Source of the DNA: Candidatus Poribacteria bacterium
GTDB taxonomy: Bacteria; Poribacteria; WGA-4E; WGA-3G
Direction of reading: 5' to 3'
NCBI GenBank assembly: GCA_958295945.1
Contig: OY282386.1
Coordinates: forward strand, 3,776,204 to 3,840,203
DNA length: 64,000 nt
In this document: positions 40,168-53,859 of the stretch, piece after piece
Position numbering within the stretch: the first letter of the stretch is position 1
Layout of the letters: every line of letters starts with the position of its first letter
Notes under the pieces: model-generated
Told to the model about the DNA's origin: nothing
The model's input: only the letters and a program-made list of their open reading frames with translations
Databases searched by the model: none
Translations under genes and position numbers: made by a program

Positions 40168-41016
40168 CTATGTTTCTACAGATTCACGACCTTTTAGGGT
40201 GCGAAAATACAACACCGTACCCACGAGCACAATAATCATAAGTATGAAAGAGAGTGCAGCACCAAAAGGAAAATCTCGCGCTGTTTTGAATTGTCGTTCA
40301 ATGACATTTCCGATAAAGCTAACTTTCCCACCACCAAGGATGTCTGGTGTTAGAAATGCACCAACCGTCGGAATAAAGACTAACATTGACCCGGCAAGTA
40401 TACCGGGTAGACTCAATGGTAATGTGATGTGCCAGAAAGCATGTCTTGAAGATGCCCCCAAATCCTTCGCTGCATCTATCAGAGACATATCCATCTGCTC
40501 TAACGCAACATATAGTGGGAGGATCATAAATGGTAAATATCCGTATACCAGACCAATCTGCACTGCAAATGGTGTGTTTAGGAGTTCAAGTGGTTGAAAA
40601 CCTGGAATTAGAACTGAAAGCGATGAATTCAGAAGTCCTTCTGTGCGAAGTATGAGTATCCACGCATAGGTGCGGATGAGAAAGTTGATCCAGAATGGCA
40701 GGACGACAAGCAGTAACAGGACATTACGGAATTTAGGACGGTAGTATGCAAGATAATAGGCAAAAGGGTAGCCAACAAGTAGACAAATGGCAGTGCAAAC
40801 GAATGCTGTTGAGACTGACCGCCAGAGGATGCGGAGATAGATTGGATCAAAAAAACGTTGGTAATTTTCTAAAGTGAACTGTGCTTCTATACCACCGTAC
40901 GTACCACGTTTTAGGAAACTATAGATGAAAACAGAAATTAGGGGTAGAAAGAAGAATATGAGAAGCCAGAGAATTACGGGGGAGAGTAGGATTAGGATTC
41001 GCGAATTACGTGGCAT
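40168..41016 (-). CDS. potB: Spermidine/putrescine-type ABC transporter permease PotB
   Basis: A 282-aa permease with six membrane helices and the EAA-type loop DMSLIDAAKDLGASSRHAFW. The GAFLTPDILGG segment is typical of PotB. Its ATG lies inside the 3' end of the restriction endonuclease gene (11-bp overlap), with no ribosome site of its own in intergenic DNA, so its translation depends on the defence operon. This is odd for a nutrient transporter and suggests that the defence genes displaced its original upstream region. Confidence 0.9.
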   Translation of the reverse strand: MPRNSRILILLSPVILWLLIFFFLPLISVFIYSFLKRGTYGGIEAQFTLENYQRFFDPIYLRILWRSVSTAFVCTAICLLVGYPFAYYLAYYRPKFRNVLLLLVVLPFWINFLIRTYAWILILRTEGLLNSSLSVLIPGFQPLELLNTPFAVQIGLVYGYLPFMILPLYVALEQMDMSLIDAAKDLGASSRHAFWHITLPLSLPGILAGSMLVFIPTVGAFLTPDILGGGKVSFIGNVIERQFKTARDFPFGAALSFILMIIVLVGTVLYFRTLKGRESVET

Positions 41017-44014
41017 TTTGTTTCATAAACTCACGGATATAGTTTTGTATGTTCCACGGATCGGTAATTTCAAGAAAATCCCATTTTCCAAACTCTCCAG
41101 AACCATTCACTGCTGGTAACCACATATTTTTGATAGTATTGACCTTTTGGACTTTATCTTCCCTTGGCATTCCAGAAACTTCAAGAATAAGATTGACAAT
41201 ACCATCGTTAGAACCGTTATTTGCTATCCGAATACGGGCAATAAAATCTGGAACATATTGACGGCTTTCCCCGTTGTGATTGATGTATGGAATCGTGAAA
41301 TCTAAGTTATGGTTTTTGACATAGGCAATTACTTCATCCATTTGTTCCAGTGCCTGTGCTGTCTTCTGCTCCCAAGATTCTGTATCAGCCACTACATGAG
41401 TTATGTGGCATTTATCAGGTTTTGTTTCCCAAGTTGGACGTGAGGTCTCAAATAGGACATCTGACGTTGTTCCAGTGCGACCCTTTATACGCGAAGATTG
41501 TGAAAAAATTGGGATGAATATCTTCTCTGAAGTAGTGACTTTAGAATCTGTTCCCTTGGACTGTTGTTCACCATTGAGGATCCCCATGTAGATACGATAT
41601 GCAGCCTTCCGAGCGATTTCATTGATATGAAAAAACTGCGGATATGTGTTGTCTTTATAAGTAACACATTCTTTCATCCACTTGCGCGTGATATGAAGTA
41701 GTTTTGAAAAAAGCCACCATTTTGCATCATCATCGGTATCACAAAGGTGGTTATCCATGAGTACTTTTGTAAGATAGAACTCAGTTTCTTGCTGCCGGTA
41801 TTTTGATAAATATGGCAATTCAACCTCTTTTATTACGCCTGTAATACCTTCAATCTCTATACGAGAAGGAATTTCTGCTGTTGATAGTTGGTAATGAGAA
41901 TCTTCAGTGAAATTGGCATCAACGTTCTGAGATGGTAAGCATGGGCGATATCCAGCAATTTTCGGAAATGTGATTTCGCACTTTGCTTTTCTTTCGGGTA
42001 CAGCCTTAACTTCAGTAACAGGATTTGGTTGGACTGCTTTTCCACTACCAGTTGCTGGGATAAATGAGAAGGGGACTCCATATACTTCAGCGTACTCTGG
42101 CGGAAATGTTTCCAACTCTATATCGTTGTCATTGACCTTAATAGTTGTCTTTTCAAAATCATAAGTTGATCGGCGCAAGCCTCTCCCGACAACCTGTTCA
42201 CAAAGTAGTTGTGTGCTAAAGGCGCGTACGCCAAGGATATGTGTTACTCGTCTTGCATCCCATCCTTCACTTAACATTGATACAGAAACGACACACTTGA
42301 TTTTTTCGCCCAGTTTACCTCGCTTACCAACAGTGTTCAGGACTTCGCGTAGGAGCTCTGCATCTGTGACTTTCTCCACATTCATCTTGCGTCTAAACTG
42401 TTCAATCTGAGTTCGTGCGGCTTTCTTAAATGTATCACTAAGTGCTTCACCAGATTCCAACTGCTTGCTATCAATTAGAAGTGTGCTCATTTTTTCACTC
42501 CAGATACCGTTTTCTTCGTTACTGAAGATTGGTAAATTCCCTTGAACAAGGACCTTTTCTCCATCAGCAGTCTGTTTCTCCCATCCAGCAATCCAGTCGT
42601 AAACGAGTTTGGACACTTTCGTATTGTTGCAAACGACAATCATGACAGGTGGTGTTAATCCATGTTGATCTTTCTGCCATAGATCGAACGACTTTTCATA
42701 ATTTGTATAAAGACTTTGGAGTGCTGTTTCCAATTCTTGAGGTAGATGTGGTTCACCACCGCTTGTAATGCCTTTGAGTTTAGGTCCAACAACATGCCAA
42801 AGTCGGCGATAAATCGGATCGTTTGCCATTGTATCGTCTGCCACTGGTACCCGTGGCACCTTTGCAATGCCACTTTCTATTGCATCTATCAATGCAAAAT
42901 CTGATACGACCCACGGGAACAGAACACCTTCCTTAAGTTTTTTACCGCTTTGGGTAGTAGTGGAATAACCGGAACCACTTAGGAAGAATGGGGTTGCAGA
43001 TAAATCGTAGATAGTTTTTATGCCTATTTTTTCTTTCACTGCATAGAGTCCACTTATCCAAAGGCGTGGATTGTCATTTGTTAACTCAGCTTCCTTATCT
43101 TGTTTTCGTCGGAAACAGTGGTGTGCTTCATCGTTCAGAACAATGATGTTCTTTTTTCTACCAAAACTTCGACAGACGCGCGCGACCATCTCATCAGGTG
43201 TTTCAGTGAAATTTTTCGCGCTGTCTTTTCCCAGAACCTGCGCGCCTACTTTGCTCAATTCCTCTTTTTTTCGGGTTTGAAAAGCGTGATAGTTCGTAAT
43301 AATGATTTTCGCTTGACAGAGCGTGTCAAAGTCTCCGTGTGGAAGCAAATTCATTTTTTTATAGTCGTTTTCAGGGTTTTCAGGAAGAAGTACTTGCAAG
43401 CGATCACGTATTGTTACGCCAGGGGTGACAATGAGAAATGCATCAGTATAACGTTCACTTCGGGAAGTTGCTCTTTTGTTTAAGGTGTGATACACAATTA
43501 GCATCGCCATGACCAATGTTTTACCAGTCCCTGTTGCCATCTTGAATGCAACTCGGTATAGGTCGGGGTTCGCTTCGTTGTTCAGATTCAATAGTTGTTT
43601 ATGGAATGAATCACTGCGATTCTTGTTTTCACATTCATTCAGATAGATAACGGTTTCTACTGCTTCACGTTGGCAGAAAAAGAGACGTGGTTCGTTTTCA
43701 GGATTGTTCCAATGTTCAAGTAGTCGTTTTGTCGTAGGCGTTACTCCTGGATAACCACTCTTGCGCCACGCTGTTACTTGGGCGCGCACTTTGTTGATAA
43801 AAACGTTTGCCTCCCGAAGTTCCGGGTCGGAAAGAAGTTTCATTTGCGCGTCCTGTGACTGTTTTTTCGGTTTCGGCATCGGGACAAAGTATTCACTTTG
43901 ACGTCTACCTTCTTCAATATCCTCAGTAATCCCACGCGGCGTAAATTTGAAGTGCCGTTGTGGTTCCTCAAACGGACTGTTGATGACTGGATTATCTATG
44001 ATGACTTTTGACAT
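41006..44014 (-). CDS. res: Type III-like restriction endonuclease subunit (SF2 helicase-nuclease)
   Basis: A 1002-aa DEAD/DEAH-type translocase-nuclease. Helicase motifs: I FKMATGTGKTLVMAM, II VLNDEAHHCF, III LSATPFFLSG, V SVSMLSEGWDARRVTHILG, VI LLCEQVVGRGLRR. A C-terminal nuclease-like segment reads YVPDFIARI...NLILEVSG, a PD-(D/E)xK pattern with the last Lys changed to Ser. The size and plan fit a BPTD_3080-like/type III Res protein. It lies 20 bp after PIN1 and belongs to one long minus-strand run with mod at 51.2 kb, from which it is separated by about 4.5 kb of ATPase-PIN genes. Confidence 0.9.
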   Translation of the reverse strand: MSKVIIDNPVINSPFEEPQRHFKFTPRGITEDIEEGRRQSEYFVPMPKPKKQSQDAQMKLLSDPELREANVFINKVRAQVTAWRKSGYPGVTPTTKRLLEHWNNPENEPRLFFCQREAVETVIYLNECENKNRSDSFHKQLLNLNNEANPDLYRVAFKMATGTGKTLVMAMLIVYHTLNKRATSRSERYTDAFLIVTPGVTIRDRLQVLLPENPENDYKKMNLLPHGDFDTLCQAKIIITNYHAFQTRKKEELSKVGAQVLGKDSAKNFTETPDEMVARVCRSFGRKKNIIVLNDEAHHCFRRKQDKEAELTNDNPRLWISGLYAVKEKIGIKTIYDLSATPFFLSGSGYSTTTQSGKKLKEGVLFPWVVSDFALIDAIESGIAKVPRVPVADDTMANDPIYRRLWHVVGPKLKGITSGGEPHLPQELETALQSLYTNYEKSFDLWQKDQHGLTPPVMIVVCNNTKVSKLVYDWIAGWEKQTADGEKVLVQGNLPIFSNEENGIWSEKMSTLLIDSKQLESGEALSDTFKKAARTQIEQFRRKMNVEKVTDAELLREVLNTVGKRGKLGEKIKCVVSVSMLSEGWDARRVTHILGVRAFSTQLLCEQVVGRGLRRSTYDFEKTTIKVNDNDIELETFPPEYAEVYGVPFSFIPATGSGKAVQPNPVTEVKAVPERKAKCEITFPKIAGYRPCLPSQNVDANFTEDSHYQLSTAEIPSRIEIEGITGVIKEVELPYLSKYRQQETEFYLTKVLMDNHLCDTDDDAKWWLFSKLLHITRKWMKECVTYKDNTYPQFFHINEIARKAAYRIYMGILNGEQQSKGTDSKVTTSEKIFIPIFSQSSRIKGRTGTTSDVLFETSRPTWETKPDKCHITHVVADTESWEQKTAQALEQMDEVIAYVKNHNLDFTIPYINHNGESRQYVPDFIARIRIANNGSNDGIVNLILEVSGMPREDKVQKVNTIKNMWLPAVNGSGEFGKWDFLEITDPWNIQNYIREFMKQNAT

Positions 44015-44034
44015 TTGGCATAACTCCTATTGCC

Positions 44035-44583
44035 TTAACTTGTTTTCGATCTCTGTCGTTCCTCACGTCTTTTATGGAGGTGTTGAATGTTATCCTCACA
44101 GATAAATTCAACGATTAAACCGTTCTCAACGAAAATCTCTCGCGATCCATACCACTGGCTATCTACTGATTGTAGAAGCGTGGCTTTTTGTTGATGGACA
44201 TTTTCGTACACAACTGCTACAGCAATAAACTTTTTGTCGTCCGAGTCAAAGTCCTGGAACGCATCAGGTAATTCTTCAAAACTGGTTTCATCTGCAGTCG
44301 GTGTAATATGTACTTGCACACATTGCTCCTGATTCTCATAGTTGCGAATGAACCATTCCAGAAAGTACCCGCCGCTACGCTCAACCGTCGGCGGCTCGTC
44401 ATCTTCAAGATAGTTCATATATTCACGGAGTATTATCCATTTATCGTCAATCACTACTTTTTCAGTTCCTTCAATAATCTCATCTAACCGCTCTTGACAT
44501 GCAATAACACATTCGGGCCACGCTTGTTCAGACATGCCTTTTGCGGCAAGGATAACGTTTGTATCTATAACAACAGCTTTCAT
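44035..44583 (-). CDS. PIN-like nuclease 1, partner of ATPase 1
   Basis: A 182-aa protein with a PIN-like arrangement: D7 (VVIDTNVIL), E54 (ILREYMNY), D116 (DSDDKKFIAVA) and D141 (LQSVDSQW). It should be a metal-dependent RNase, or a DNase. The start codon overlaps the stop of ATPase 1 (ATG/TAA region, 1 bp), and res follows after 20 bp. It is about 35% identical by eye to the second copy at 46427-46933, especially around the acidic residues and CQ.RL..I. The C-terminal basic tail (HKRREERQRSK) is lacking in copy 2. Part of a two-gene ATPase-PIN module. Confidence 0.75.
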   Translation of the reverse strand: MKAVVIDTNVILAAKGMSEQAWPECVIACQERLDEIIEGTEKVVIDDKWIILREYMNYLEDDEPPTVERSGGYFLEWFIRNYENQEQCVQVHITPTADETSFEELPDAFQDFDSDDKKFIAVAVVYENVHQQKATLLQSVDSQWYGSREIFVENGLIVEFICEDNIQHLHKRREERQRSKTS

Positions 44584-45902
44584 TAACCCTCCGCTTCTTT
44601 CTGGCGTTTCATCTGTTCACGTGTCATTTTTAGGAGATCACCTCTCACATTCCCAAAAAAGTCTTTCGGCCAGTTTTTGATGTTACCAAGTTCATCTAAC
44701 TCCAGAGGTTTAATTTTAGAAGTGCCGTTTTCATTCTCACAAAAATAGAGGGCAGTTTGATTAGCACCAATCTTCTGTTCTGCAATCCGCAGTTGCAGCC
44801 GTGTTAAAAGATGTTCGCTATGGCTTTCAACTAAAATCTGAAGTTTTCGTTCATTGATAACTTCTATCAACAGATCTGCTATGTCAACTTGTGCTTTGGG
44901 ATGAAGGTGAATACCGGGTTGTTCCAAAATTAAGGTTGAACCTACAGGAGCATAGTAGCAGAGTCCCAAGACAGGTAGAAACTGCGATAGTCCGTACCCC
45001 ATATCAGCAAGTGTGATTTTAGGTCCAGATTCTTTCAACTGAATACGGACATCATAATCTTTACCATCATGATTGTCTGATCGTTCTAATATAAAAGAAT
45101 TGGCAAGGTTCATTTTACGTAACCATTCAGATATTCTCTCCTCAATTGATACTTCTCCCTCGTCGTGTTGAATTGTTTTTCTATCAACACGTGCTGAGAG
45201 TAGAGCGTCAATTGTTTTATCTCCCAATCGTCCTATATCTTTAGGATGATCGCCTTCCCAATGATACTGTCTTTGTGGATGTGCGCGAATAGGACCAAGA
45301 TAAAAGACATGTGAAAACAATACTTCAAATGCAGATGTGTATTTGTTAAGGGAATTTACCGATTCAGATGTTCCTAATGTCATCATACCGTAACAATTAC
45401 TAAGTTGATTGATTATATCTCCATATTGACTACGTGGGAAAGATATGCGACCATCACTGTACATTATTTTGGCCACTCCATCTAATGTAGGCCCATAGTT
45501 TAGACTTTCCAAATTCAATTTACCGTTTTTTAAACGAAATATACCTTCGTAGGCAAATTGTTGTAAGTTTCGTTCCCATACAGAACCATCTTCAGGTATA
45601 TTGAAATATGGTCGTAAATTTGTAAGATTGCACTGAAATTCAAATTCAAGTGGTGCTATCAATTTATGATCATGAATTACCTCGCGAAAATCTCCGAGAT
45701 TCACATAAGAAGTTTCATCACCAAAAAAAATAACTTCCTCTGCATCTTTCCTCTCTGCAGTTTGCTTAAGCAATAGCAGCATCTGCAACAGACTACTCTT
45801 CCCAGAACTATTCGTCCCGAAAAAGCCTGTCAACGGCGCAAGTTCCACCTCACCGCTATCCTTCCACGATTTGAAATTTTTCATTCGGATATGTGTAATC
45901 AT
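44583..45902 (-). CDS. ABC/SMC-like AAA ATPase (DUF3696 type) 1
   Basis: A 439-aa ATPase of the OLD/AriA/RecF-like group. N-terminal MITHIRMKNFKSWKDSGEVE is the hallmark recF-like strand, followed by Walker A G29-TNSSGKSS, an ABC-type signature in LADMGYGLSQF, Walker B STLILEQPGIHLHP and the switch VESHSEHLL. The C-terminal ELGNIKNWPKDFFGN segment is of DUF3696 type. There is no nuclease (TOPRIM) domain in the chain; the PIN protein encoded next probably supplies it. A strong -10 promoter lies upstream. It is the clear tandem paralogue of ATPase 2 (46930-48255), with long stretches identical (first 50 residues, the Walker B region). Confidence 0.88.
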   Translation of the reverse strand: MITHIRMKNFKSWKDSGEVELAPLTGFFGTNSSGKSSLLQMLLLLKQTAERKDAEEVIFFGDETSYVNLGDFREVIHDHKLIAPLEFEFQCNLTNLRPYFNIPEDGSVWERNLQQFAYEGIFRLKNGKLNLESLNYGPTLDGVAKIMYSDGRISFPRSQYGDIINQLSNCYGMMTLGTSESVNSLNKYTSAFEVLFSHVFYLGPIRAHPQRQYHWEGDHPKDIGRLGDKTIDALLSARVDRKTIQHDEGEVSIEERISEWLRKMNLANSFILERSDNHDGKDYDVRIQLKESGPKITLADMGYGLSQFLPVLGLCYYAPVGSTLILEQPGIHLHPKAQVDIADLLIEVINERKLQILVESHSEHLLTRLQLRIAEQKIGANQTALYFCENENGTSKIKPLELDELGNIKNWPKDFFGNVRGDLLKMTREQMKRQKEAEG

Positions 45903-45925
45903 TTTTTTTGTCTCCAGGTTGACAT

Positions 45926-45954
45926 ATTATAATGTGAGCTCCGTTTAACTTTAA
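45926..45954 (-). promoter_or_regulatory. Candidate promoter ahead of ATPase 1
   Basis: On the minus strand: -35 TTAAAG (45954-45949, 3/6 match), 17-bp spacer, perfect -10 TATAAT (45931-45926), and GGAG before ATG 45902. Would allow module 1 and res to be transcribed independently of mod. Confidence 0.45.
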
Positions 45955-46020
45955 TGCACAATAGGATCGGTACTGCAAACGCTTAGCCCCTTTTTATCCA
46001 TCGCAATCGAGAGAACTCTC

Positions 46021-46436
46021 TTACTCCCACAGTAGGACTTTTCCATCTCCACAACCACTTACAAGTGTCCAACTATCTGGCGAAAAACACAAATTGTTAA
46101 CTTGTGCTGTATGTTCAGTCCGCGTTTTCAACAGTTTGCCTATGTTAACATCCCATAGCAGAATTACGCTGTCGTCATATCCACCACTGGCAAGTATGCA
46201 ACTATCCGTGCTAAAAGCGAGAGCGCGTGCATAAGCGTTCCTCTCATGCCTTGTAAATGCTTGGCGTTGTTCACCGGTAGCAACATCCCATAAATCAATA
46301 CTGTGGTCCCAAAGTCCGCCACCAGAGGCAAGTGTACGACCATCCGTACTGAATACTGTGCAAAAGGCTCTGCCGGTTACCACTGCAAGAGTTTTGAGGC
46401 ATGCACCTGAGGTAATGTCCCATAAACTAATAGGTA
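46021..46436 (-). pseudogene. WD40-repeat gene fragment
   Basis: About 138 codons of WD40 repeats (ISLWDITSGACLKTL, FSTDGRTLASGGG, LAFSTDSCILASGG, LCFSPDSWTLVSGCG) with no start codon or signal peptide. It begins abruptly inside the last codons of PIN2 and ends in a stop after GKVLLWE. It is a piece of a propeller gene (three blades) left in the defence island, resembling the WD40 genes at 14.9-17.2 kb. It is probably untranslated or makes a useless product. Confidence 0.75.
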
Positions 46437-46933
46437 TCCTCTTCACAGATAAGGTCGACGGTGACTCCGTGATTTTTAAGCGCATTCATATATTCAAGCC
46501 AACCTCTATCTATTGCCAATAAGATAGTTGGCACTTGTCCAGCATCGCGCTGATATGCAAGCGCAACAGCGATAAATTTTCGATCATTTTTGTGGAAACC
46601 CGTTAACGCGTCATCGCTGTTTGGAAACTCTTCAAAATCTGTGCCGTTTCCAGCTAACGGTGTGATAACCACCATTGGGCAGATGTTCGGGTTCCCCTGA
46701 TTTTGCAATAGTGTTTTTACAAACACATCACCAATTCCCTTTTGAGTCCTTAAATTTACATATTTCTTGTACTCATTAAGTATTCGCTGGCGATTATCAA
46801 CAACTACCTTTTCATGCTGTTCGAGAATCTGTTGAAGTCGATCTTGACAACGTTCTATACAGTCAAGTGAGGCATGGGATGCCGCGCCATTTGCAATCAC
46901 GATAACGTTCGTATCCACGATAACAGCGTTCAT
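46427..46933 (-). CDS. PIN-like nuclease 2, partner of ATPase 2, C-terminally clipped
   Basis: A 168-aa paralogue of PIN1 with all four acidic residues kept: D7 (VIVDTNVIV), E54 (ILNEYKKY), D117 (HKNDRKFIAVALAY) and D142 (LLAIDRGW). Its ATG overlaps the 3' end of ATPase 2 by 4 bp. It ends LICEEDTY followed by stop, where PIN1 continues ICEDNIQHLHKRREE; the sequence directly after this point is the WD40 fragment, so the last ~17 residues were lost by a recombination junction. The catalytic core is intact, so it may still be active. Confidence 0.75.
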   Translation of the reverse strand: MNAVIVDTNVIVIANGAASHASLDCIERCQDRLQQILEQHEKVVVDNRQRILNEYKKYVNLRTQKGIGDVFVKTLLQNQGNPNICPMVVITPLAGNGTDFEEFPNSDDALTGFHKNDRKFIAVALAYQRDAGQVPTILLAIDRGWLEYMNALKNHGVTVDLICEEDTY

Positions 46934-48255
46934 TCACCCTCCGCTCTCTTTCTGCGTTCCATTTCTGCTTTAGACCTCGCAAACAGTTCACCCATCTCAT
47001 TGCCAAAAAAGTTTTCTGGCCAATTTGAGATGTTACCGAACTCATCCATTTTTAAGCGTTCAATATTAGAAACGCCCTCATCGTTCCGACAAAAATAGAG
47101 AGCAGTTTGATCACTGTTAATCTTTTCTTCGGCAATTCGGCGTTGTAAACGGTTTAACAGATGTTCACTATGGCTCTCCACCAAAACCTGAAGTTTTCGT
47201 TCATTGATAACTTCTATCAGCAGATCCGCTATGTCAGCTTGTGCTTTGGGATGAAGGTGGGTACCGGGTTGTTCCAAAATTAAGGTAGAACATTCTGGGG
47301 CATAATAACATAAAACGAGAATAGGTAAAAACTGCGATATTCCGTACCCCATATCCGCTAGCGTTACCTTTGCGCTGTCAGGTGCATTTTGGACGAGGAC
47401 ATCATAATCCCGATCCGTCCCTGCACTACTGCGTTTAATCATAAAGGAATAGGCAAGATCCATTTCTCGCAGCCACCAAGAGATTCGTTTTTCAATGGGG
47501 ACATTTTGTCCTTCGTAAGGGGTTGTTGTTTGATCCACACGAGCGTTTAGTAGTGATGCAATCAAATCTTCACCATTTTGCCCAACACTATCAGGGTCTG
47601 TCCCTTCCCAATGATAGAGGCGTTTCGGATGGACACGAGTCGGACCAAGTGGGTAAACATGCTTAAACAAATTTTCAAATGCAGAGGAAAGTGGGAGTAA
47701 AAGTTGAACCTGTCCACTTTCTGGCGGACCATAACACTTAGTAACGCTGACTTTGCCCTTTTGTCTATGTCCATAAAAAAGGTTTCCATTTTTCCACTTT
47801 ATTTCCTTAATATCTTCCGGTCCAACGGTATAAGAGAAATGCTCAATTGACATACTTCCAGTATTTTCTCTGATAATAGTATCATAAATGAAACTATCAA
47901 TATCTAACGCTGCAAAATCATATAGTGGCCTATATCTGTCAATCTGTTGAAAGGTAGTGATAGTTAATGGTTCTTGGAGCTTGCATCCAAACCCCAACTC
48001 AAGTGATTCCTCCACATTATGTCCATGAATCACTTCACCGAAACTACCGAGGTTGACGAGAGAATTTTCATCACCAAAAAAGATAACTTCCTCAGCGTCT
48101 GAACGTTCTGCTGTCTGCTTAAGCAATAGCAGCATCTGCAACAGACTACTCTTCCCAGAACTATTCGTCCCGAAAAAGCCTGTCAACGGCGCAAGTTCAA
48201 CCTTACCGCTATCTTTCCACGACTTGAAGTTTTGCATTCGGATGTGTGTAATCAT
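46930..48255 (-). CDS. ABC/SMC-like AAA ATPase (DUF3696 type) 2
   Basis: A 441-aa paralogue of ATPase 1, with the same RecF-like start (MITHIRMQNFKSWKDSGKVE), Walker A GTNSSGKSS, ABC-type signature LADMGYGISQF, Walker B STLILEQPGTHLHP and VESHSEHLL switch. The central sensor region (about residues 75-190) is strongly diverged between the copies while the ATPase core is almost identical, as expected if that region recognises a trigger. GGAGGCAGGAAAAG precedes ATG 48255. It overlaps PIN2 by 4 bp. Confidence 0.88.
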   Translation of the reverse strand: MITHIRMQNFKSWKDSGKVELAPLTGFFGTNSSGKSSLLQMLLLLKQTAERSDAEEVIFFGDENSLVNLGSFGEVIHGHNVEESLELGFGCKLQEPLTITTFQQIDRYRPLYDFAALDIDSFIYDTIIRENTGSMSIEHFSYTVGPEDIKEIKWKNGNLFYGHRQKGKVSVTKCYGPPESGQVQLLLPLSSAFENLFKHVYPLGPTRVHPKRLYHWEGTDPDSVGQNGEDLIASLLNARVDQTTTPYEGQNVPIEKRISWWLREMDLAYSFMIKRSSAGTDRDYDVLVQNAPDSAKVTLADMGYGISQFLPILVLCYYAPECSTLILEQPGTHLHPKAQADIADLLIEVINERKLQVLVESHSEHLLNRLQRRIAEEKINSDQTALYFCRNDEGVSNIERLKMDEFGNISNWPENFFGNEMGELFARSKAEMERRKRAEGE

Positions 48256-48281
48256 CTTTTCCTGCCTCCGTGTTAACGCTA

Positions 48282-48467
48282 ATTGTCTGAACCAGGATTC
48301 ACTGGATTATAGGATTTTCAGGATTATAGTGCCTTCTGCTATAACCGTTTGTTCTCCACAGCAATTCAAAAGGTTCTGAAGATCATGCACGCTTGCTTGT
48401 TCCAAGAACATTATACCACCAATAATCCTGAAAATCCTATAATCTTGCTAATCCTGGTTCAGACAAT
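48282..48467. repeat. 186-bp element with 45-bp terminal inverted repeats
   Basis: The first 45 bp (ATTGTCTGAACCAGGATT...) and last 45 bp are inverted copies matching at about 39 positions, including the GATTATAGGATTTTC core. It has no ORF. It fills the gap between mod and ATPase 2 and would fold into a giant hairpin in RNA. MITE-like. Confidence 0.88.
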
Positions 48468-48479
48468 AAACATCTATCA

Positions 48480-51167
48480 CTAAACTTTATATTCCTTCAT
48501 CACCTCGTCACCGTAATGATTGATGACCTTCACCGCAATTTTCCCAGATTCAGGCTTGGCAAACGAGATACTTTCTGTCCGATACAGTGCTTCCCACGCA
48601 TCCTCGTTAATTTCTGTTTTGAGTGCTTTTTTGAGCTGCTTATACGGTTCGTTTTCACCTGTGAAATATGCATGCCGCACGATAAACGCCTCGCCATTGT
48701 AGGCAGTATCAATGAACCAACACGCGATGTCTTCCGGTGTCCCTGAACGGAGCAACCCCTGTCCTGGATCGTATACATCTACACCTAAGAGTTTGACAGA
48801 AACAGTGCCATCTTGATTTTCTACAATCTCCACGTCTGGTTCGCCGAACACCATAAACAGATTGCCCTCACCCGTGTTTTTGAGTTCGCGTACCATCAAC
48901 TCAGGACTAATTTTGACAGGAAGTATCGGTAAACTTCCGATGCGTGTGTCCTCATCAGCGGTGTAACCCTCAAAAGCGAATCCTGCAACGATTAAGAGGT
49001 CGTACTCGGAGATTTTTCTCACTGCCTCCTTCGCAGCTTCACGTATCCACTGCTTACCTACGGTATCATACTGCGGTCCGATGCTGATAGCAATGTTTTT
49101 TGTTTTCTCGTCTTTATCTGTCCATACACCTTCAGCATGTATCCACTCACCAGGATGTTCCTCTAACCAATCGAAAGTGATGCGCTGATCCTTGAGACGA
49201 TTTTGCACCCCTGCTGTTTTGAGATGCTCAAGGATATGTTTATGGTAATCTTGCTCTGTTTCTGAAGGGACAGAGGTTGGGGCACCGTTTTCGGCATCCG
49301 CAGATTCAAAAACAAGATGTGGCGATAAACTCTCTACTGTAAAGGGACCTGTAACGCGGACGCGTTTTTTGTCTATATAAGGTTGATCATAAAGTGTCTC
49401 ACTTTTTGCCCGTTTTGCGGTAGAAGCATCCATTGTAAGCTGCCGTTCACGTTTTAGTGATAGCCATTCACGATGCAGTTTCTGAAGTTCTGGATCCCAT
49501 GAGGAATCGGTTTCGGTTGGTACCTCCCACTCTTCCCAATTTTGTTCAGCAAGTGCATTCATTTCTGTGCGTCGTGGGTCTAATTTCTCTGCATATTCTG
49601 CGTGGATATCGTCAATCTCTGTATTATTTGCCATATCAGAAAGACTAACATACGGTGCTGTTTTATAGCAGAAACCCGCCTTGATATCGTCCACATCTTG
49701 AAGGCGATAGTACGGATATTTAGCAGCCATGAGACGAGTGCGTGCCAATGCAAGTGCTACCTTTGACGTATCTACTGTTATCCAACGCCTGCCCCACTGC
49801 TCTGCGACATAAGCGGTTGTGCCACTACCACACGTTGGATCGAGGACTAAGTCCCCTGGATCTGTTGTCATGAGTATACATCTTTGGATAACTTTAGGGT
49901 TAGTTTCAACGACGTAACTTTTTCCTGAACGTCCACCTGCAGTATCTGTCCAGAGATTAGTAGTGGAACGCCCTGGCGAATCAGCGGAATATCGAATATA
50001 ACGGAGTGATTTACCAGGAGCGAAAAGTCTGCCCTGTTTTGCCATCCTATCTAAACCCTCACGACTTGCTGCCCAGCCTCTGTCGCTTGTAGGAACGAAA
50101 ATTTTCCCTTCAAACTCATAAGGATACGTTGCATCACCAGCAGTTTGTGATGTTACTGAATAATCTACAAACCTTCGACTTTCTTCAGGCAGCAAAGAAG
50201 GATCTTCTTTTTCTTTACTTCTCATTCCACGGCGCGTACCATCTGGCAATTCAACTTTTTCATAGGATTTGAGAAGAGGATCAGGAGCGCGTTCATTCCA
50301 TTCCATGTAGAGTTGACGGTACTTTATCTCATCTTTATTTTTTGCATACCATAGCAGATAGTCAAAAACTGAAGATATGGAAGAAGATGAAGTTAATTCA
50401 CCTCTTGTCCATGCTACCGTAGTAACAGCATTTTCACCTCCAAATACCTCGTCTAACACACACCGGACAAGGTGCATGTTCTCATCGCTAATTTGGACAA
50501 AAACACTGCCTGAATTATTAAGCAATTCGTGCACAACAACAAGTCGGTCCCGAAGATAGGCGAGGTAAGAGTGAATGCCCAATTCCCAAGTATCACGGAA
50601 CGCCTTAATCTGTTCAGGTTGAGGCGTAACACCTTCTATTTTTGCATCATCAACGCTTTGTTTTCGCGTACTGACTTGCCAATTGCTGCTGAATTTGATA
50701 CCGTAAGGCGGATCAAAAAAGATTGTCTGGACACTATTTTTGAGTCCCTCTTTTTCAGCAAGAGAGTTCATCACAGCAAGCGAATCGCCAAGGATAAAGC
50801 GGTTATGCCAGTTCTGTTCGTGTTGGTAAAACTCAATTTTCTGTTCAAAGTCAAGGTTTTCAAACCCTTCAAATAGCGATCCGATTTGATCTGATTCTTT
50901 CTGCTGTTGCGCGCGGAGTGCCTCGATTATGGCTTGCGGTTGGATATGTTCCTGAATGTAGATAGGAACTGCAGGCACTTCAAGATCATTGTCGTTCTGT
51001 TGGTCTTTGCCTTTCCAAACTAATTGCGGGTCAAGGGCAATATCTCGTGGGTAGCGTGTTGGTTTGAAGTCATCGTCTTCTGCAAATCCACTGAGTTCTT
51101 GCGTTGGATTGTTGGGTAATTTGTCGGAATGTTCATAATGGTTAATAGGTTTTTTTGGCATAGGCAA
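48480..51167 (-). CDS. mod: Type III-like DNA methyltransferase (Mod)
   Basis: An 895-aa site-specific adenine/cytosine-N4 methyltransferase of beta order. Motif IV D152-PPYG is near the N-terminus (IFFDPPYGIKFSSNW), and the SAM-binding motif I comes later as VLDPTCGSGTTAYVAEQWGRRWITVD. Between them is the target-recognition region. The ~400-residue C-terminal part (SPHLVFESADAENG, GKIAVKVINHYGDEVMKEYKV) is an extended domain of the kind that partners with BPTD_3080-like Res. It starts the restriction-modification run that ends with res at 41.0 kb. Confidence 0.92.
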   Translation of the reverse strand: MPMPKKPINHYEHSDKLPNNPTQELSGFAEDDDFKPTRYPRDIALDPQLVWKGKDQQNDNDLEVPAVPIYIQEHIQPQAIIEALRAQQQKESDQIGSLFEGFENLDFEQKIEFYQHEQNWHNRFILGDSLAVMNSLAEKEGLKNSVQTIFFDPPYGIKFSSNWQVSTRKQSVDDAKIEGVTPQPEQIKAFRDTWELGIHSYLAYLRDRLVVVHELLNNSGSVFVQISDENMHLVRCVLDEVFGGENAVTTVAWTRGELTSSSSISSVFDYLLWYAKNKDEIKYRQLYMEWNERAPDPLLKSYEKVELPDGTRRGMRSKEKEDPSLLPEESRRFVDYSVTSQTAGDATYPYEFEGKIFVPTSDRGWAASREGLDRMAKQGRLFAPGKSLRYIRYSADSPGRSTTNLWTDTAGGRSGKSYVVETNPKVIQRCILMTTDPGDLVLDPTCGSGTTAYVAEQWGRRWITVDTSKVALALARTRLMAAKYPYYRLQDVDDIKAGFCYKTAPYVSLSDMANNTEIDDIHAEYAEKLDPRRTEMNALAEQNWEEWEVPTETDSSWDPELQKLHREWLSLKRERQLTMDASTAKRAKSETLYDQPYIDKKRVRVTGPFTVESLSPHLVFESADAENGAPTSVPSETEQDYHKHILEHLKTAGVQNRLKDQRITFDWLEEHPGEWIHAEGVWTDKDEKTKNIAISIGPQYDTVGKQWIREAAKEAVRKISEYDLLIVAGFAFEGYTADEDTRIGSLPILPVKISPELMVRELKNTGEGNLFMVFGEPDVEIVENQDGTVSVKLLGVDVYDPGQGLLRSGTPEDIACWFIDTAYNGEAFIVRHAYFTGENEPYKQLKKALKTEINEDAWEALYRTESISFAKPESGKIAVKVINHYGDEVMKEYKV

Positions 51168-51208: not shown

Positions 51209-51526
51209 TTAACTATCGTCGTTCGGCAGCCCGATGTCATCAATTGTTTCTGCGGTTAATGCTTTGTCAAAAATAGTATCAAGGCGAGCTATGTCATGTA
51301 TCAAGTGAATCTTGTATTTAACAGGATCAGGAATAGCACGAAATCGGGAGTATAGTACTTTGATAATGCTTTCCTGTTTTGCCAGCTTTTTACCTTGCTC
51401 TATGCCTCGTTTTACACCAAGTGCTAAATTGGGTTCTATACCTTTTGCAATACTTTCTGCTATAGTTTTTGAATAGCCTGCTACAAAGCCTTGTTCTCTG
51501 GCAACGTCTACTACTGTTTTTGCCAT
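51209..51526 (-). CDS. Stand-alone Rpn C-terminal-tail protein (RpnS-like)
   Basis: A 105-aa protein homologous only to the C-terminal tail of the Rpn nuclease encoded next to it, with no nuclease domain. The start ATG 51526 (MAKTVVDVAREQG) lies behind a GGAGGTAGAAAAC ribosome site; an ATG 15 bp earlier overlaps that site. Sequence parallels: MAKTVVDVAREQG versus MAQSIIDITKEQG, and ending RLDTIFDKALTAETIDDIG versus RLNSLFEKAATIDTLDDFD. In known rpn loci, an internal start makes such a tail that blocks the toxic nuclease; here the tail also exists as its own gene. Antitoxin role is an inference. Confidence 0.7.
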   Translation of the reverse strand: MAKTVVDVAREQGFVAGYSKTIAESIAKGIEPNLALGVKRGIEQGKKLAKQESIIKVLYSRFRAIPDPVKYKIHLIHDIARLDTIFDKALTAETIDDIGLPNDDS

Positions 51527-51571
51527 GTTTTCTACCTCCATCTCGTGTGCCTGTTGTGCGCTATAACGATT

Positions 51572-52642
51572 TTATTCATCAAAATCGTCAAGTGTATCAA
51601 TAGTTGCGGCTTTCTCAAAGAGTGAATTGAGGCGTGAATGGTCCTGTATGCCGTTAATTTTCTTGGTAATGGTTTCTGGGAGAGTCTCAAACTTTATTTG
51701 CAGTAGTTTGATGATGTCCTCCCGTCTTGCTTGTTCTTTGCCTAGTTCTATACCTTGTTCTTTGCCTAGTTCTATACCTTGTTCTTTTGTGATATCAATG
51801 ATTGATTGTGCCATGTTTTCTACCTCCATATCATGGGCATGCTGTTCAATAAGCGTTATTAGTTCCTGGTGTTCTTCAGTGGGGCGACGATGTAAGATTA
51901 ACAAAACCAAATAGGCAAACGCCTTGCGCCGTTGTGGTGCTTTTGTTTCGTCAAGTGCTTCAAGGTAGGAGCCCACTTCAAGCATAGCGGTGCTTAGTGT
52001 TTCCTTATCCGCATTTTCCTTTTGAAGAACCGTTAGTAACCACCCTAATGGATGGTCAGTTTCCTTTAGGGCCGCTGTCTCTGTTTCATTTACACTGAGA
52101 AACAGCGTATCAAATTTTGGAACGAACCGTGTAAGCACATCGGGTATATCCATTATTGCATCAAGGGTCAGTGGGTTGCTCCACCGCCTTTCGCCCGTGT
52201 AATATACAATTGGAAGGATTGGGCGGAAACGCCACTGACTTTTAGGTACATTGTCAGTTTCCCATCCTCTCCGTTGTGAATCCCAAATCTGCATCATGTA
52301 AAACAGCACACGGAACCCCATTATAGGGTCAACCGTGGATTGATGTTCAATGAGGATATAAATAAGTAGTTCGTCTGTTCCCGATTCGGTCTGAAACGGC
52401 ACGTTAAACACCATGTCAGCCTGCTGCTCACGCAGCGTGTCGGAAATAAAGCTCTTGTTAATTTGTGATAGGCGACTAAAATCAATATGTTCCACCAATT
52501 CACTTGCAAGAATTTCTACCAGGTCCCGGACACACTCTTTATTTTCAAACAACCAGCGTGTACTTCGGTCAGGAAAGGGGTCAAGTGGAGTATCGAAAAA
52601 GCTAAGTATTTCCGGTTCTTGGGTGTGTTCAGTTTTTGACAT
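51572..52642 (-). CDS. Rpn family PD-(D/E)xK nuclease (recombination-promoting/anti-phage)
   Basis: A 356-aa Rpn/transposase_31-type nuclease. N-terminal SFFDTPLDPFPDRSTRWLFEN, core catalytic residues D76 (QADMVFNVPFQ) and E99-H-Q101 in LLIYILIEHQS, the usual Rpn variant of PD-(D/E)xK. The C-terminal tail holds an exact tandem GIELGKEQ repeat and the MEVENMAQ site with an internal ribosome binding sequence. Start ATG 52642 follows AGGAGCTTA; the longer frame to 52675 overlaps the MoeB gene. Rpn proteins cut DNA non-specifically and can stop phage growth; it heads the defence island. Confidence 0.88.
   Translation of the reverse strand: MSKTEHTQEPEILSFFDTPLDPFPDRSTRWLFENKECVRDLVEILASELVEHIDFSRLSQINKSFISDTLREQQADMVFNVPFQTESGTDELLIYILIEHQSTVDPIMGFRVLFYMMQIWDSQRRGWETDNVPKSQWRFRPILPIVYYTGERRWSNPLTLDAIMDIPDVLTRFVPKFDTLFLSVNETETAALKETDHPLGWLLTVLQKENADKETLSTAMLEVGSYLEALDETKAPQRRKAFAYLVLLILHRRPTEEHQELITLIEQHAHDMEVENMAQSIIDITKEQGIELGKEQGIELGKEQARREDIIKLLQIKFETLPETITKKINGIQDHSRLNSLFEKAATIDTLDDFDE
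51812..51827 (-). promoter_or_regulatory. Internal ribosome binding site and start codon in the Rpn gene
   Basis: GGAGGTAGAAAAC-ATG (minus strand; ATG at 51814-51812) is a near-ideal Shine-Dalgarno and start inside the rpn gene, giving an 80-aa in-frame product (MAQSIIDITKEQG to the normal stop). The identical site precedes the separate tail gene at 51526. Confidence 0.75.
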
Positions 52643-52671
52643 TAAGCTCCTAATCTGAAATTCACCTTTTA

Positions 52672-53859
52672 TCAATCCGCAGCAGGAGCAAATGTTTCAG
52701 GATTTTCAGCTGCTGCATCGTAATCTTCAATCAGTTTTGTTATACTCGGGTTTTCACCGCATAGCGGACAATTTTCATCACGAGGCACTTTCATTTCACG
52801 ATAAGTCATACTCAGTGCATCATAAAGAATTAGCCTACCGATAAGCGGTTCACCGAGACCAAGAATATACTTAATCGCTTCAGTTGCCATCATCACACCG
52901 ATAACGCCTGGGAGCACGCCCAGGACACCTGCTTCACTTCAGCTTGGCACCAAGCCGGGTGGTGGAGGCGTAGGATACATGCATCGGTAGCAAGGACCTT
53001 CGTTCGGTTTGAAGAGACTTACCTGTCCTTCAAATTGGAAAATGCTACCATGCACAATCGGTTTGTTCATCAGAACTGCAGCATCGTTGACAAGAAATCG
53101 CGTTGCGAAGTTGTCGCATCCATCAACAATCAGATCGTATTCCGAAAAAATCTCCTCAACATTGTCTGCAGTGAGTCGCAGGTTATACGGTGTAATCTCA
53201 ACATCTGGGTTGAGTGATTTTATCGTAGTAGTTGCCGACTGAACTTTCGGTGTGCCAACTGCTTCTGTCCTGTGAAGAATCTGACGTTGTAGATTGCTCA
53301 ACTCCACAACATCTGAGTCAATAATCCCCATCTGTCCAATACCAGCAGCACCAAGATATACACCAGCAGGCGAACCTAATCCACCAGCACCGACGAGTAA
53401 AACTTTAGCATCAAGTAATTTTGCTTGTCCACGTTCACCAACTTCGGTAAGCATGAAGTGACGACTATACCTATCAAGTTGCTCATGCGACATCTCTTTA
53501 TCTTGTACAGTTGGGAATCCAGCAGTAGACCAGTCTCTGTATCCACCCGCCATGGATACGGTATCTGTATATCCCATCTCACGCAACGATTTTGCTGCGA
53601 GGAGTGAACGTGATCCAGCAGCACAATACACCACAACCTTTTGATCTCGGTCAGGAATGTAATCTTCAACAGAGAATTCCAGCATCCCACGAGTTACGTG
53701 AACAGCATCGGGTATATAACCCGCACGATATTCATCTTCATCGCGAACATCTAGCAGTACAAAGTCACTTCCATTTTCCTTGTTTTCTTTAACGTCTGTG
53801 GCTGTGACTTCTGGGATCTCTGTCTTTGCCTCCTCTACGATTTGCCTATACGATTTCAT
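52672..53859 (-). CDS. Rhodanese-MoeB/ThiF fusion, probable selenoprotein (in-frame TGA)
   Basis: A 395-residue protein if TGA 52941-52939 is read through. The start ATG 53859 (MKSYRQIVEE) follows GGAGAACAATTT. Residues ~25-110 are a rhodanese domain with the catalytic Cys in VVVYCAAGSRS. Then follows an E1-like MoeB/ThiF adenylyltransferase: LLVGAGGLGSPAGVYLGAAGIG (ATP), DVVELSNLQRQ, VDGCDNFATRFLVND, and zinc cysteines in PCYRCMYP and NCPLCGE. The TGA falls in PPPPGLVPS-U-SEAGVLGVLPG, where relatives have the conserved Cys, and the frame continues normally to the end. A SECIS-like hairpin follows. The likely role is activating a ThiS/MoaD-type sulfur carrier. A point mutation to a stop (pseudogene) or a sequencing error is the alternative. 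Confidence 0.78.
52907..52941 (-). promoter_or_regulatory. TGA codon with SECIS-like hairpin
   Basis: TGA at 52941-52939, then 14 nt, then CCTGGG-CGTGCT-CCCAGG (52924-52907): a perfect 6-bp stem with a 6-nt loop whose second base is G, 22 nt after the TGA. Bacterial SECIS elements need a stem-loop just after UGA with a G in the first two loop positions at 16-37 nt, which this meets. The element lies within coding sequence that is itself conserved, so chance pairing is possible. Confidence 0.65.

What the first reader, a model, noticed from the sequence alone, without database searches (positions are those of the whole stretch)
43990..48260. Duplicated ATPase-PIN module nested inside a type III-like R-M locus
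Between mod (51.2-48.5 kb) and res (44.0-41.0 kb) sit two tandem copies of an overlapping gene pair: a RecF/OLD-like DUF3696 ATPase plus a PIN-like nuclease. The pairing is like PARIS or OLD systems (ATPase sensor plus nuclease effector) but with a PIN domain instead of TOPRIM/DUF4435. I cannot match it to a named defence system. All genes point the same way and are tightly spaced, suggesting one composite defence system or an R-M system carrying an abortive-infection guard.
Basis: partly seen in the sequence, partly recalled or inferred. Interest (0 to 1): 0.85.

Follow-up and report, generated by a model that had tools for sequence, protein, structure and literature searches.

The report
Mosaic ATPase–PIN defence cassettes beside R-M
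Two copies of a probable phage-alarm gene pair (an ATPase and an RNA-cutting PIN enzyme, already catalogued as candidate HEC-03) sit inside a restriction-modification locus of a sponge-symbiont-type bacterium, and relatives show that the ATPase's putative sensing segment is swapped between copies while its tail stays with one PIN type.

Summary
Two overlapping ATPase–PIN pairs lie between mod and res in a Poribacteria-phylum genome. The claim that no named system fits is wrong: both pairs match PADLOC's candidate HEC-03, defined by embedding in defence loci. The PIN tetrad (D7, E54, D117, D142) is invariant in 95 relatives, and the ATPase motifs are intact.

New here: (1) The pair, not the R-M system, is the constant resident of a conserved site 5' of potB: 15 loci with R-M, 20 without, none with R-M alone. 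(2) The copies are old paralogues, not a recent duplication. (3) At this site cassettes are mosaics. ATPase residues 81–200 are hypervariable and unlinked to the PIN, while the ATPase tail co-segregates with the PIN. Pairs elsewhere in these genomes show no such shuffling. (4) Outside this phylum, six loci have an RNA ligase directly after the PIN, pointing to RNA as the target.

Best explanation: an OLD/PARIS/PrrC-like sensor-plus-RNase alarm whose exchangeable sensors diversify in tandem arrays, living beside R-M without depending on it. Anti-phage activity, trigger and RNA target are inferred. New variant of a known candidate kind.

The parts
46930..48255 (-). ATPase1 (HEC-03B; AAA_15 + DUF3696), mod-proximal cassette, 441 aa
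   Evidence: PADLOC HEC-03B E 1e-110; Pfam AAA_15, DUF3696; AF2 pLDDT 90, Foldseek OLD/GajA/PtuA/Rad50
46427..46933 (-). PIN1 (HEC-03A), 168 aa, effector type 3
   Evidence: PADLOC HEC-03A E 7e-31; tetrad D7/E54/D117/D142 invariant in 95 relatives; AF2 pLDDT 95.6; typing
44583..45902 (-). ATPase2 (HEC-03B), res-proximal cassette, 439 aa
   Evidence: PADLOC HEC-03B E 4e-106
44035..44583 (-). PIN2 (HEC-03A), 182 aa, effector type 1
   Evidence: PADLOC HEC-03A E 5e-26; typing
47656..48015 (-). putative sensor segment of ATPase1 (residues 81-200; 81-180 hypervariable; beta-rich insert 85-168)
   Evidence: mean pairwise identity 0.21-0.34 over residues 81-180; unlinked to PIN; DSSP of model
45303..45662 (-). 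putative sensor segment of ATPase2 (residues 81-200); different sensor type from copy 1
   Evidence: 15-22% identity to copy 1 over residues 81-160; sensor type 19 vs 5
46933..47175 (-). ATPase1 C-terminal tail (residues 361-441, includes DUF3696), linked to PIN1
   Evidence: tail-PIN distance correlation rho 0.66, 0/1000 shuffles (residues 401-441)
46021..46426 (-). WD40-repeat gene fragment between the cassettes
   Evidence: Pfam WD40 E 4e-18; sequence
48480..51167 (-). mod: type III-like DNA methyltransferase (optional neighbour)
   Evidence: PADLOC MTase_III PDLC03632 831 bits
41006..44014 (-). res: BPTD_3080 family restriction endonuclease (optional neighbour)
   Evidence: NCBIfam NF046055 1057 bits, above cut-off
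48282..48467 (.). 186-bp inverted-repeat (MITE-like) element between mod and ATPase1
   Evidence: 46-nt arms 91% complementary; core motif found 9 times in the genome, 2 of them here
40168..41016 (-). potB-like permease: 3' anchor of the conserved site
   Evidence: syntenic across the family

Best explanation
Each unit is a HEC-03 cassette: an OLD/Rad50-like ABC ATPase that senses infection and holds or gates a small PIN RNase. A phage-made trigger, read mainly by the hypervariable beta-rich insert (about residues 81-180), changes the ATPase state. The PIN, docked on the ATPase's C-terminal DUF3696 tail, then cuts RNA, probably tRNA or other translation RNA, and stops phage production at the cost of the cell. 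In this bacterial family the cassettes live at one fixed site 5' of potB as arrays of 1-3 positional paralogues. Recombination in the conserved ATPase blocks swaps sensor segments between cassettes and lineages, while tail plus PIN move together. The flanking R-M system is a companion that comes and goes, not a required partner. Shown: gene content, synteny, intact motifs, mosaic structure, tail-PIN linkage, recurrent defence-gene neighbours. Inferred: anti-phage function, sensing by the variable insert, docking on the tail, RNA as substrate, abortive outcome.
For: Family: HEC-03A/B matches. Active sites: PIN D7/E54/D117/D142 invariant in 95 PINs of the phylum and in 68 PINs from many phyla; Walker A, D301/G303/G305 and Walker B/H-loop residues invariant in 56 ATPases. 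Fold: ATPase top hits OLD, GajA, PtuA, Rad50; PIN weak hits led by PIN domains of Nmd4, a M. tuberculosis TA complex and SMG6. Pairing: 93 of 95 ATPases have an intact PIN directly downstream. Fixed site: 15 pair+R-M, 20 pair only, 14 neither, 0 R-M only. Mosaicism: sensor-PIN rho 0.05 (135/1000 shuffles), tail-PIN 0.66 (0/1000); control clade elsewhere in the genomes inherits pairs whole; flanking genes vertical, potB-potC 0.91, potB-res 0.79; clean swaps, e.g. L125/L126 tail+PIN 95-100% identical DNA but codons 81-300 at 32-63%. Arrays: 10 of 10 carry different sensors and different PIN types. RNA target: RNA ligase directly after PIN in Tistrella, Azotobacter, Aeromonas, a Phragmitibacter MAG, an Acetobacteraceae MAG and Rhodococcus. 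Defence context elsewhere: Hma (L230, L235), type I REase (L240), type IIG (L242).
Against: No functional assay exists here. Hypervariability could reflect relaxed constraint rather than recognition. The tail-PIN linkage could be physical proximity on DNA rather than docking, although equally close ATPase windows (281-320 vs 361-400) are unlinked (rho 0.06). RNA ligase loci are outside this phylum, and no ligase was found beside the Poribacteria pairs. Within effector types PIN tracks species only moderately (0.60 and 0.48 for the N-terminal part of types 3 and 5, none for type 1), so part of the effector module also moves. Different sensors in one array are expected by chance (10195/20000 shuffles).
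Confidence: 0.6

Rival explanations
1. PrrC-like guard: the pair is held inactive by the flanking mod/res complex and fires when a phage anti-restriction protein disables that complex.
For: Same layout as prrC inside a type Ic R-M locus, where PrrC is silenced by the R-M enzyme and released by phage Stp (PMC2610378). At the potB site R-M never occurs without the pair (15 of 15 have it; Fisher p 0.002, not corrected for kinship). PARIS senses Ocr (PMC12409363). HEC-03 also sits beside Hma, type I and type IIG genes.
Against: 20 of 35 pair-bearing potB loci have no R-M, and the non-potB clade mostly lacks this R-M. A guard silenced by R-M would be toxic once R-M is lost. The same R-M family occurs without the pair (L131, L132; L257).
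Confidence: 0.15
2. Independent neighbours: HEC-03 and R-M merely share a defence hot spot 5' of potB, and the nesting is an accident of insertion between mod and res with no functional link. (Not exclusive with the best explanation, which concerns the pair's own mechanism.)
For: HEC-03 present with or without R-M; other guests sit between mod and res of the same R-M family elsewhere (UPF0175+DUF3368 in Picosynechococcus, DUF3800 in Thermus).
Against: No R-M without a pair at this site; embedding beside several unrelated methylation-based systems suggests that the company is favoured.
Confidence: 0.4
3. Toxin-antitoxin module: the ATPase is the antitoxin of a VapC-like PIN toxin, selected for stable maintenance rather than phage sensing.
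For: PIN RNases are the classical VapC toxins (general knowledge); small overlapping two-gene unit; present on conjugative plasmids.
Against: The ATPase has a complete set of conserved ABC motifs and a hypervariable insert, neither needed for a simple antitoxin; gene order is ATPase first with no short antitoxin; the pair is chromosomal at a fixed site in this family.
Confidence: 0.12
4. DNA-targeting system: the PIN cleaves invading DNA, as TOPRIM in OLD/Gabija does.
For: Nearest ATPase folds are DNA-linked OLD, Gabija and Rad50.
Against: Recurrent RNA ligase partner in four bacterial classes and PIN RNases as the nearest structural matches, though weak.
Confidence: 0.12

Closest known systems
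HEC-03 (PADLOC; Hma-embedded candidate of Payne et al. 2024, bioRxiv 2024.01.29.577857, not read here)
   Same: Both proteins match HEC-03A and HEC-03B over nearly their full length; pair found embedded in a defence locus
   Different: Host locus is type III-like R-M rather than Hma; tandem arrays with sensor shuffling; R-M optional
PrrC / RloC anticodon nucleases
   Same: ABC-ATPase plus RNase, lying inside R-M loci; RNA-ligase connection
   Different: Separate polypeptides; PIN instead of the PrrC/RloC nuclease domain; no zinc hook; often without R-M
PARIS (AriA-AriB)
   Same: Two-gene ABC ATPase sensor plus nuclease effector; ATPase shares AAA_15 similarity with AriA models (E 5e-28)
   Different: Effector is PIN, not TOPRIM/DUF4435; HEC-03B scores far higher than AriA
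OLD / Gabija GajA / Septu PtuA
   Same: Nearest solved folds of the ATPase
   Different: Those carry TOPRIM in cis or pair with an HNH nuclease (general knowledge); no PIN partner
MADS MAD3
   Same: Weak similarity of the ATPase N-terminus (E 2e-11)
   Different: Far below the curated cut-off (44 vs 420 bits); neighbouring genes are not a MADS locus

Membership tests
HEC-03 | PIN-like protein matching HEC-03A | tested here: met
   E 5e-26 and 7e-31
HEC-03 | DUF3696 ATPase matching HEC-03B, best model by far | tested here: met
   354 and 369 bits vs next model 219-220
HEC-03 | the two genes adjacent on one strand | tested here: met
   1-4 nt overlaps
HEC-03 | embedded in an Hma system in at least some genomes | tested here: met
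   HmaB - pair - HmaC in L230 and pair - HmaC in L235; in the window the host is type III-like R-M
HEC-03 | anti-phage activity | not testable with these tools
   no assay; validation status of HEC-03 not found in held papers
PARIS | AriB DUF4435/TOPRIM effector | tested here: not met
   partner is HEC-03A PIN-like
PrrC/RloC | nuclease domain fused to the ABC ATPase | tested here: not met
   nuclease is a separate PIN protein
PrrC/RloC | linked to an R-M locus (PrrC invariably; RloC rarely) | tested here: inconclusive
   15 of 35 potB loci
Gabija / OLD | TOPRIM domain in the ATPase protein | tested here: not met
   439-441 aa ATPase with a DUF3696 C-terminus; no TOPRIM model among the Pfam matches
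Type III-like R-M (neighbouring mod/res) | N6/N4 methylase plus ResIII helicase-nuclease | tested here: met
   but res has Ser/Thr in place of the PD-(D/E)XK lysine
VapBC toxin-antitoxin | small DNA-binding antitoxin upstream of the PIN gene | tested here: not met
   upstream gene is the 440-aa ATPase

The most novel reading that the evidence does not exclude
A bacterial innate-immune locus that diversifies by segment shuffling: tandem ATPase-PIN cassettes at a fixed chromosomal site exchange hypervariable sensor segments by recombination in conserved blocks, while the ATPase tail and its PIN RNase travel together as an effector module, comparable to HsdS target-domain shuffling or NLR-type repertoires.
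Probability: 0.5. Interest if true: 0.8.

Novelty: new variant of a known kind. Interest (0 to 1): 0.62.

Why it matters
ATPase-plus-nuclease alarms (OLD, Gabija, PARIS, Septu) are widespread, but which part of the ATPase recognises the phage is often unknown. Natural mosaics that keep the tail and PIN constant while replacing residues 81-300, or keep the ATPase and replace the PIN, make that directly testable by swaps. The fixed site and single-copy flanking genes give a clean setting to study how such sensor repertoires evolve. The RNA ligase partner in other phyla gives a testable hint that the PIN cuts RNA. The locus also shows that nesting inside R-M genes does not by itself mean one composite system.

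Tried and rejected
Literature for HEC-03, NsnB and DUF3696+PIN gave no functional study in the held library. Recent tandem duplication: rejected, copies nest with other genomes. Recent gene conversion within arrays as the general cause of similarity: within-array identity exceeds both between-genome values in only 0-2 of 15 comparisons per block; in the window only codons 321-360 qualify, and codons 1-48 tie. Loss of the res catalytic lysine as a consequence of hosting the pair: rejected, the same Ser/Thr occurs in relatives without it. Phage carriage: no match in 50,697 phage records; only 3 relatives among IMG/VR contigs, not followed. Profile search of PIN against solved structures: none. 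Searching other phyla with the genome search failed because the centre must be a G handle. Chance alone explains different sensors within arrays (about half of shuffles) but less easily different PIN types (232 of 20000); the latter fits positional paralogues.

Full report
WHAT IS THERE. The window is 64 kb of a 5.34 Mb single-contig genome. Relatives recovered from named records are Candidatus Poribacteria MAGs. Reading the minus strand 5' to 3': an Rpn-like nuclease, mod, a 186-bp inverted repeat, ATPase1-PIN1, a WD40 fragment, ATPase2-PIN2, res, then potB- and potC-like permeases (the permease names rest on my reading of the sequences and on synteny). The ATPase and PIN genes overlap by 1-4 nt.

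WHAT IT IS. PADLOC names both PINs HEC-03A and both ATPases HEC-03B with strong scores. HEC means Hma-embedded candidate, from a 2024 preprint that I could not read here; later papers cite it for the guilt-by-embedding approach (PMC12988326, PMC12255303), and the first of them says several HECs have antiviral activity and names HEC-06. I found no statement on HEC-03. The pair is therefore a catalogued candidate, not an unnamed system. The PIN tetrad D7, E54, D117, D142 is invariant in 95 PINs of the phylum and in 68 PINs from many phyla. The ATPase keeps its Walker A, Walker B and H-loop residues. AlphaFold gives confident models (PIN 95.6, ATPase 90.0). The ATPase resembles OLD, GajA, PtuA and Rad50 heads. 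The PIN gives only weak structural matches, among which PIN domains lead.

THE R-M NEIGHBOURS. mod is a type III-like methyltransferase and res a BPTD_3080 family enzyme. In the phylum, res orthologues above 1300 bits numbered 18; 17 have the pair(s) between mod and res or beside res, and one contig ends too early to tell. Taken alone this suggests a composite system. The site itself says otherwise. All but a few of these pairs lie immediately 5' of potB. Across 56 potB loci examined there are 15 with pair and R-M, 20 with pair and no R-M, 14 with neither, none with R-M alone, and 7 uninformative (Fisher p 0.002, not corrected for kinship). L104 and L054 keep only fragments of res or mod beside a pair, which looks like R-M decay leaving the pair. 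res distances track potB (rho 0.79), so the R-M looks vertically inherited at this site and repeatedly lost. More distant members of the R-M family have mod and res adjacent with no pair (L131, L132).

TANDEM COPIES ARE OLD PARALOGUES. In the ATPase tree window copy 1 groups with L061 and L049 copy 2, and window copy 2 with L127, L113 and L116; the two copies share 58% identity but each is 71-75% identical to its best outside relative. In ten tandem loci all PIN types differ within the array and all sensor types differ. In 9 of 10 arrays the PIN types keep a fixed order (type 5 or 6, then 3, then 1; L047 is the exception). This fits an ancestral array of positional PIN paralogues with later losses.

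MOSAIC CASSETTES. For the potB clade, distance matrices of 40-residue windows fall into three blocks: ATPase 81-200, ATPase 201-340, and ATPase 361-441 together with the whole PIN. Correlation with the PIN is 0.05 for residues 81-200 (135 of 1000 shuffles), -0.02 for 201-320, and 0.66 for 401-441 (0 of 1000). The control clade of 41 pairs elsewhere in the same genomes shows positive correlations of about 0.3-0.8 throughout. Flanking housekeeping genes are congruent (potB-potC 0.91, potB-alr 0.88), so noise is not the reason. Individual pairs show clean swaps at DNA level: L125 and L126 have tail and PIN 95-100% identical while codons 81-300 are 32-63% identical; L050 copy 1 and L048 copy 1 are 95-98% identical over codons 201-260 but 42-43% over 101-180; L049 copy 1 and L091 have ATPases 92-98% identical over codons 61-300 but PINs only 29-77%. 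Residues 81-180 have mean pairwise identity of 0.21-0.34 against 0.73-0.96 in the Walker blocks, and form a beta-rich insert in the model. The window's two copies share codons 21-40 exactly and 90% of codons 321-360, but 29-48% of codons 81-180.

OUTSIDE THE PHYLUM. A genome scan found 434 relatives, 80 kept. Non-Poribacteria examples sit beside HmaB/HmaC, a type I REase and a type IIG enzyme. Eleven plasmids carry a relative. In Tistrella, Azotobacter, Aeromonas and Rhodococcus plasmids and in Phragmitibacter and Acetobacteraceae MAGs an RNA ligase (PF09414; annotated as such in Rhodococcus) follows the PIN directly. PADLOC has no model for that ligase.

HOW IT PROBABLY WORKS. By analogy with PARIS, where an ABC ATPase detects phage proteins and releases a tRNase (PMC12409363), and PrrC, an ABC ATPase-RNase silenced by a linked R-M enzyme and countered by phage tRNA repair (PMC2610378), I infer that the ATPase senses infection, mainly through its variable insert, and licenses the PIN docked on its tail to cut RNA. 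The RNA ligase partner elsewhere supports an RNA substrate. None of these functional steps is shown here.

LIMITS. Trees used short searches. Distance correlations ignore phylogenetic non-independence except through the control clade and flanking-gene comparisons. Within PIN types, PIN distances follow the species only moderately, so effector modules also move. Many genomes are fragmented MAGs.

Noticed in passing
L246, L224, L249, L250, L251, L253 (downstream of the PIN gene): An RNA ligase (PF09414) gene directly follows the HEC-03 PIN in six loci of Alpha- and Gammaproteobacteria, Verrucomicrobiota and Actinomycetota; the PADLOC library has no model for it.
   Followed up: partly
41006-44014 (res), motif near residues 920-945: The res subfamily reads PDF...LEVSG or LETSG, with Ser/Thr where other members have the PD-(D/E)XK lysine (EIKG). 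Shared by relatives in Chloroflexota, Cyanobacteria and Methylococcales, so independent of HEC-03; nuclease activity uncertain.
   Followed up: partly
46021-46426: WD40-repeat gene fragment lies between PIN1 and ATPase2, abutting the PIN1 stop codon.
   Followed up: no
48282-48467: 186-bp inverted repeat (46-nt arms) between mod and ATPase1; its 17-nt core occurs 9 times in the genome, MITE-like.
   Followed up: partly
G000:C1:420652-421067 (L004, L015, L055): Remnant of a third HEC-03 pair in the same genome: truncated ATPase N-terminus and PIN N-terminus.
   Followed up: partly
51209-52675; also L149, L150, L151: Rpn/YhgA-like nuclease plus a C-terminal fragment upstream of mod; in some genomes without HEC-03 an Rpn gene occupies the moeB-potB interval.
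   Followed up: partly
L256 12112-12856: In Picosynechococcus pAQ5 a UPF0175 + DUF3368 pair lies between the BPTD_3080 res and its methylase, another guest at the same position of this R-M family.
   Followed up: no
L152, L153, L157, L160, L147 (5' of potB): Other potB loci carry an uncharacterised ~390-aa gene before potB and ~1180-aa opposite-strand genes; no PADLOC match.
   Followed up: partly
L120 and L107 (one genome, G032): A HEC-03 pair lies upstream of mod and another pair lies beside res on a second contig, suggesting an array that flanks mod.
   Followed up: no
L260, L261, L262: Three IMG/VR contigs encode HEC-03A relatives (30-40% identity).
   Followed up: no
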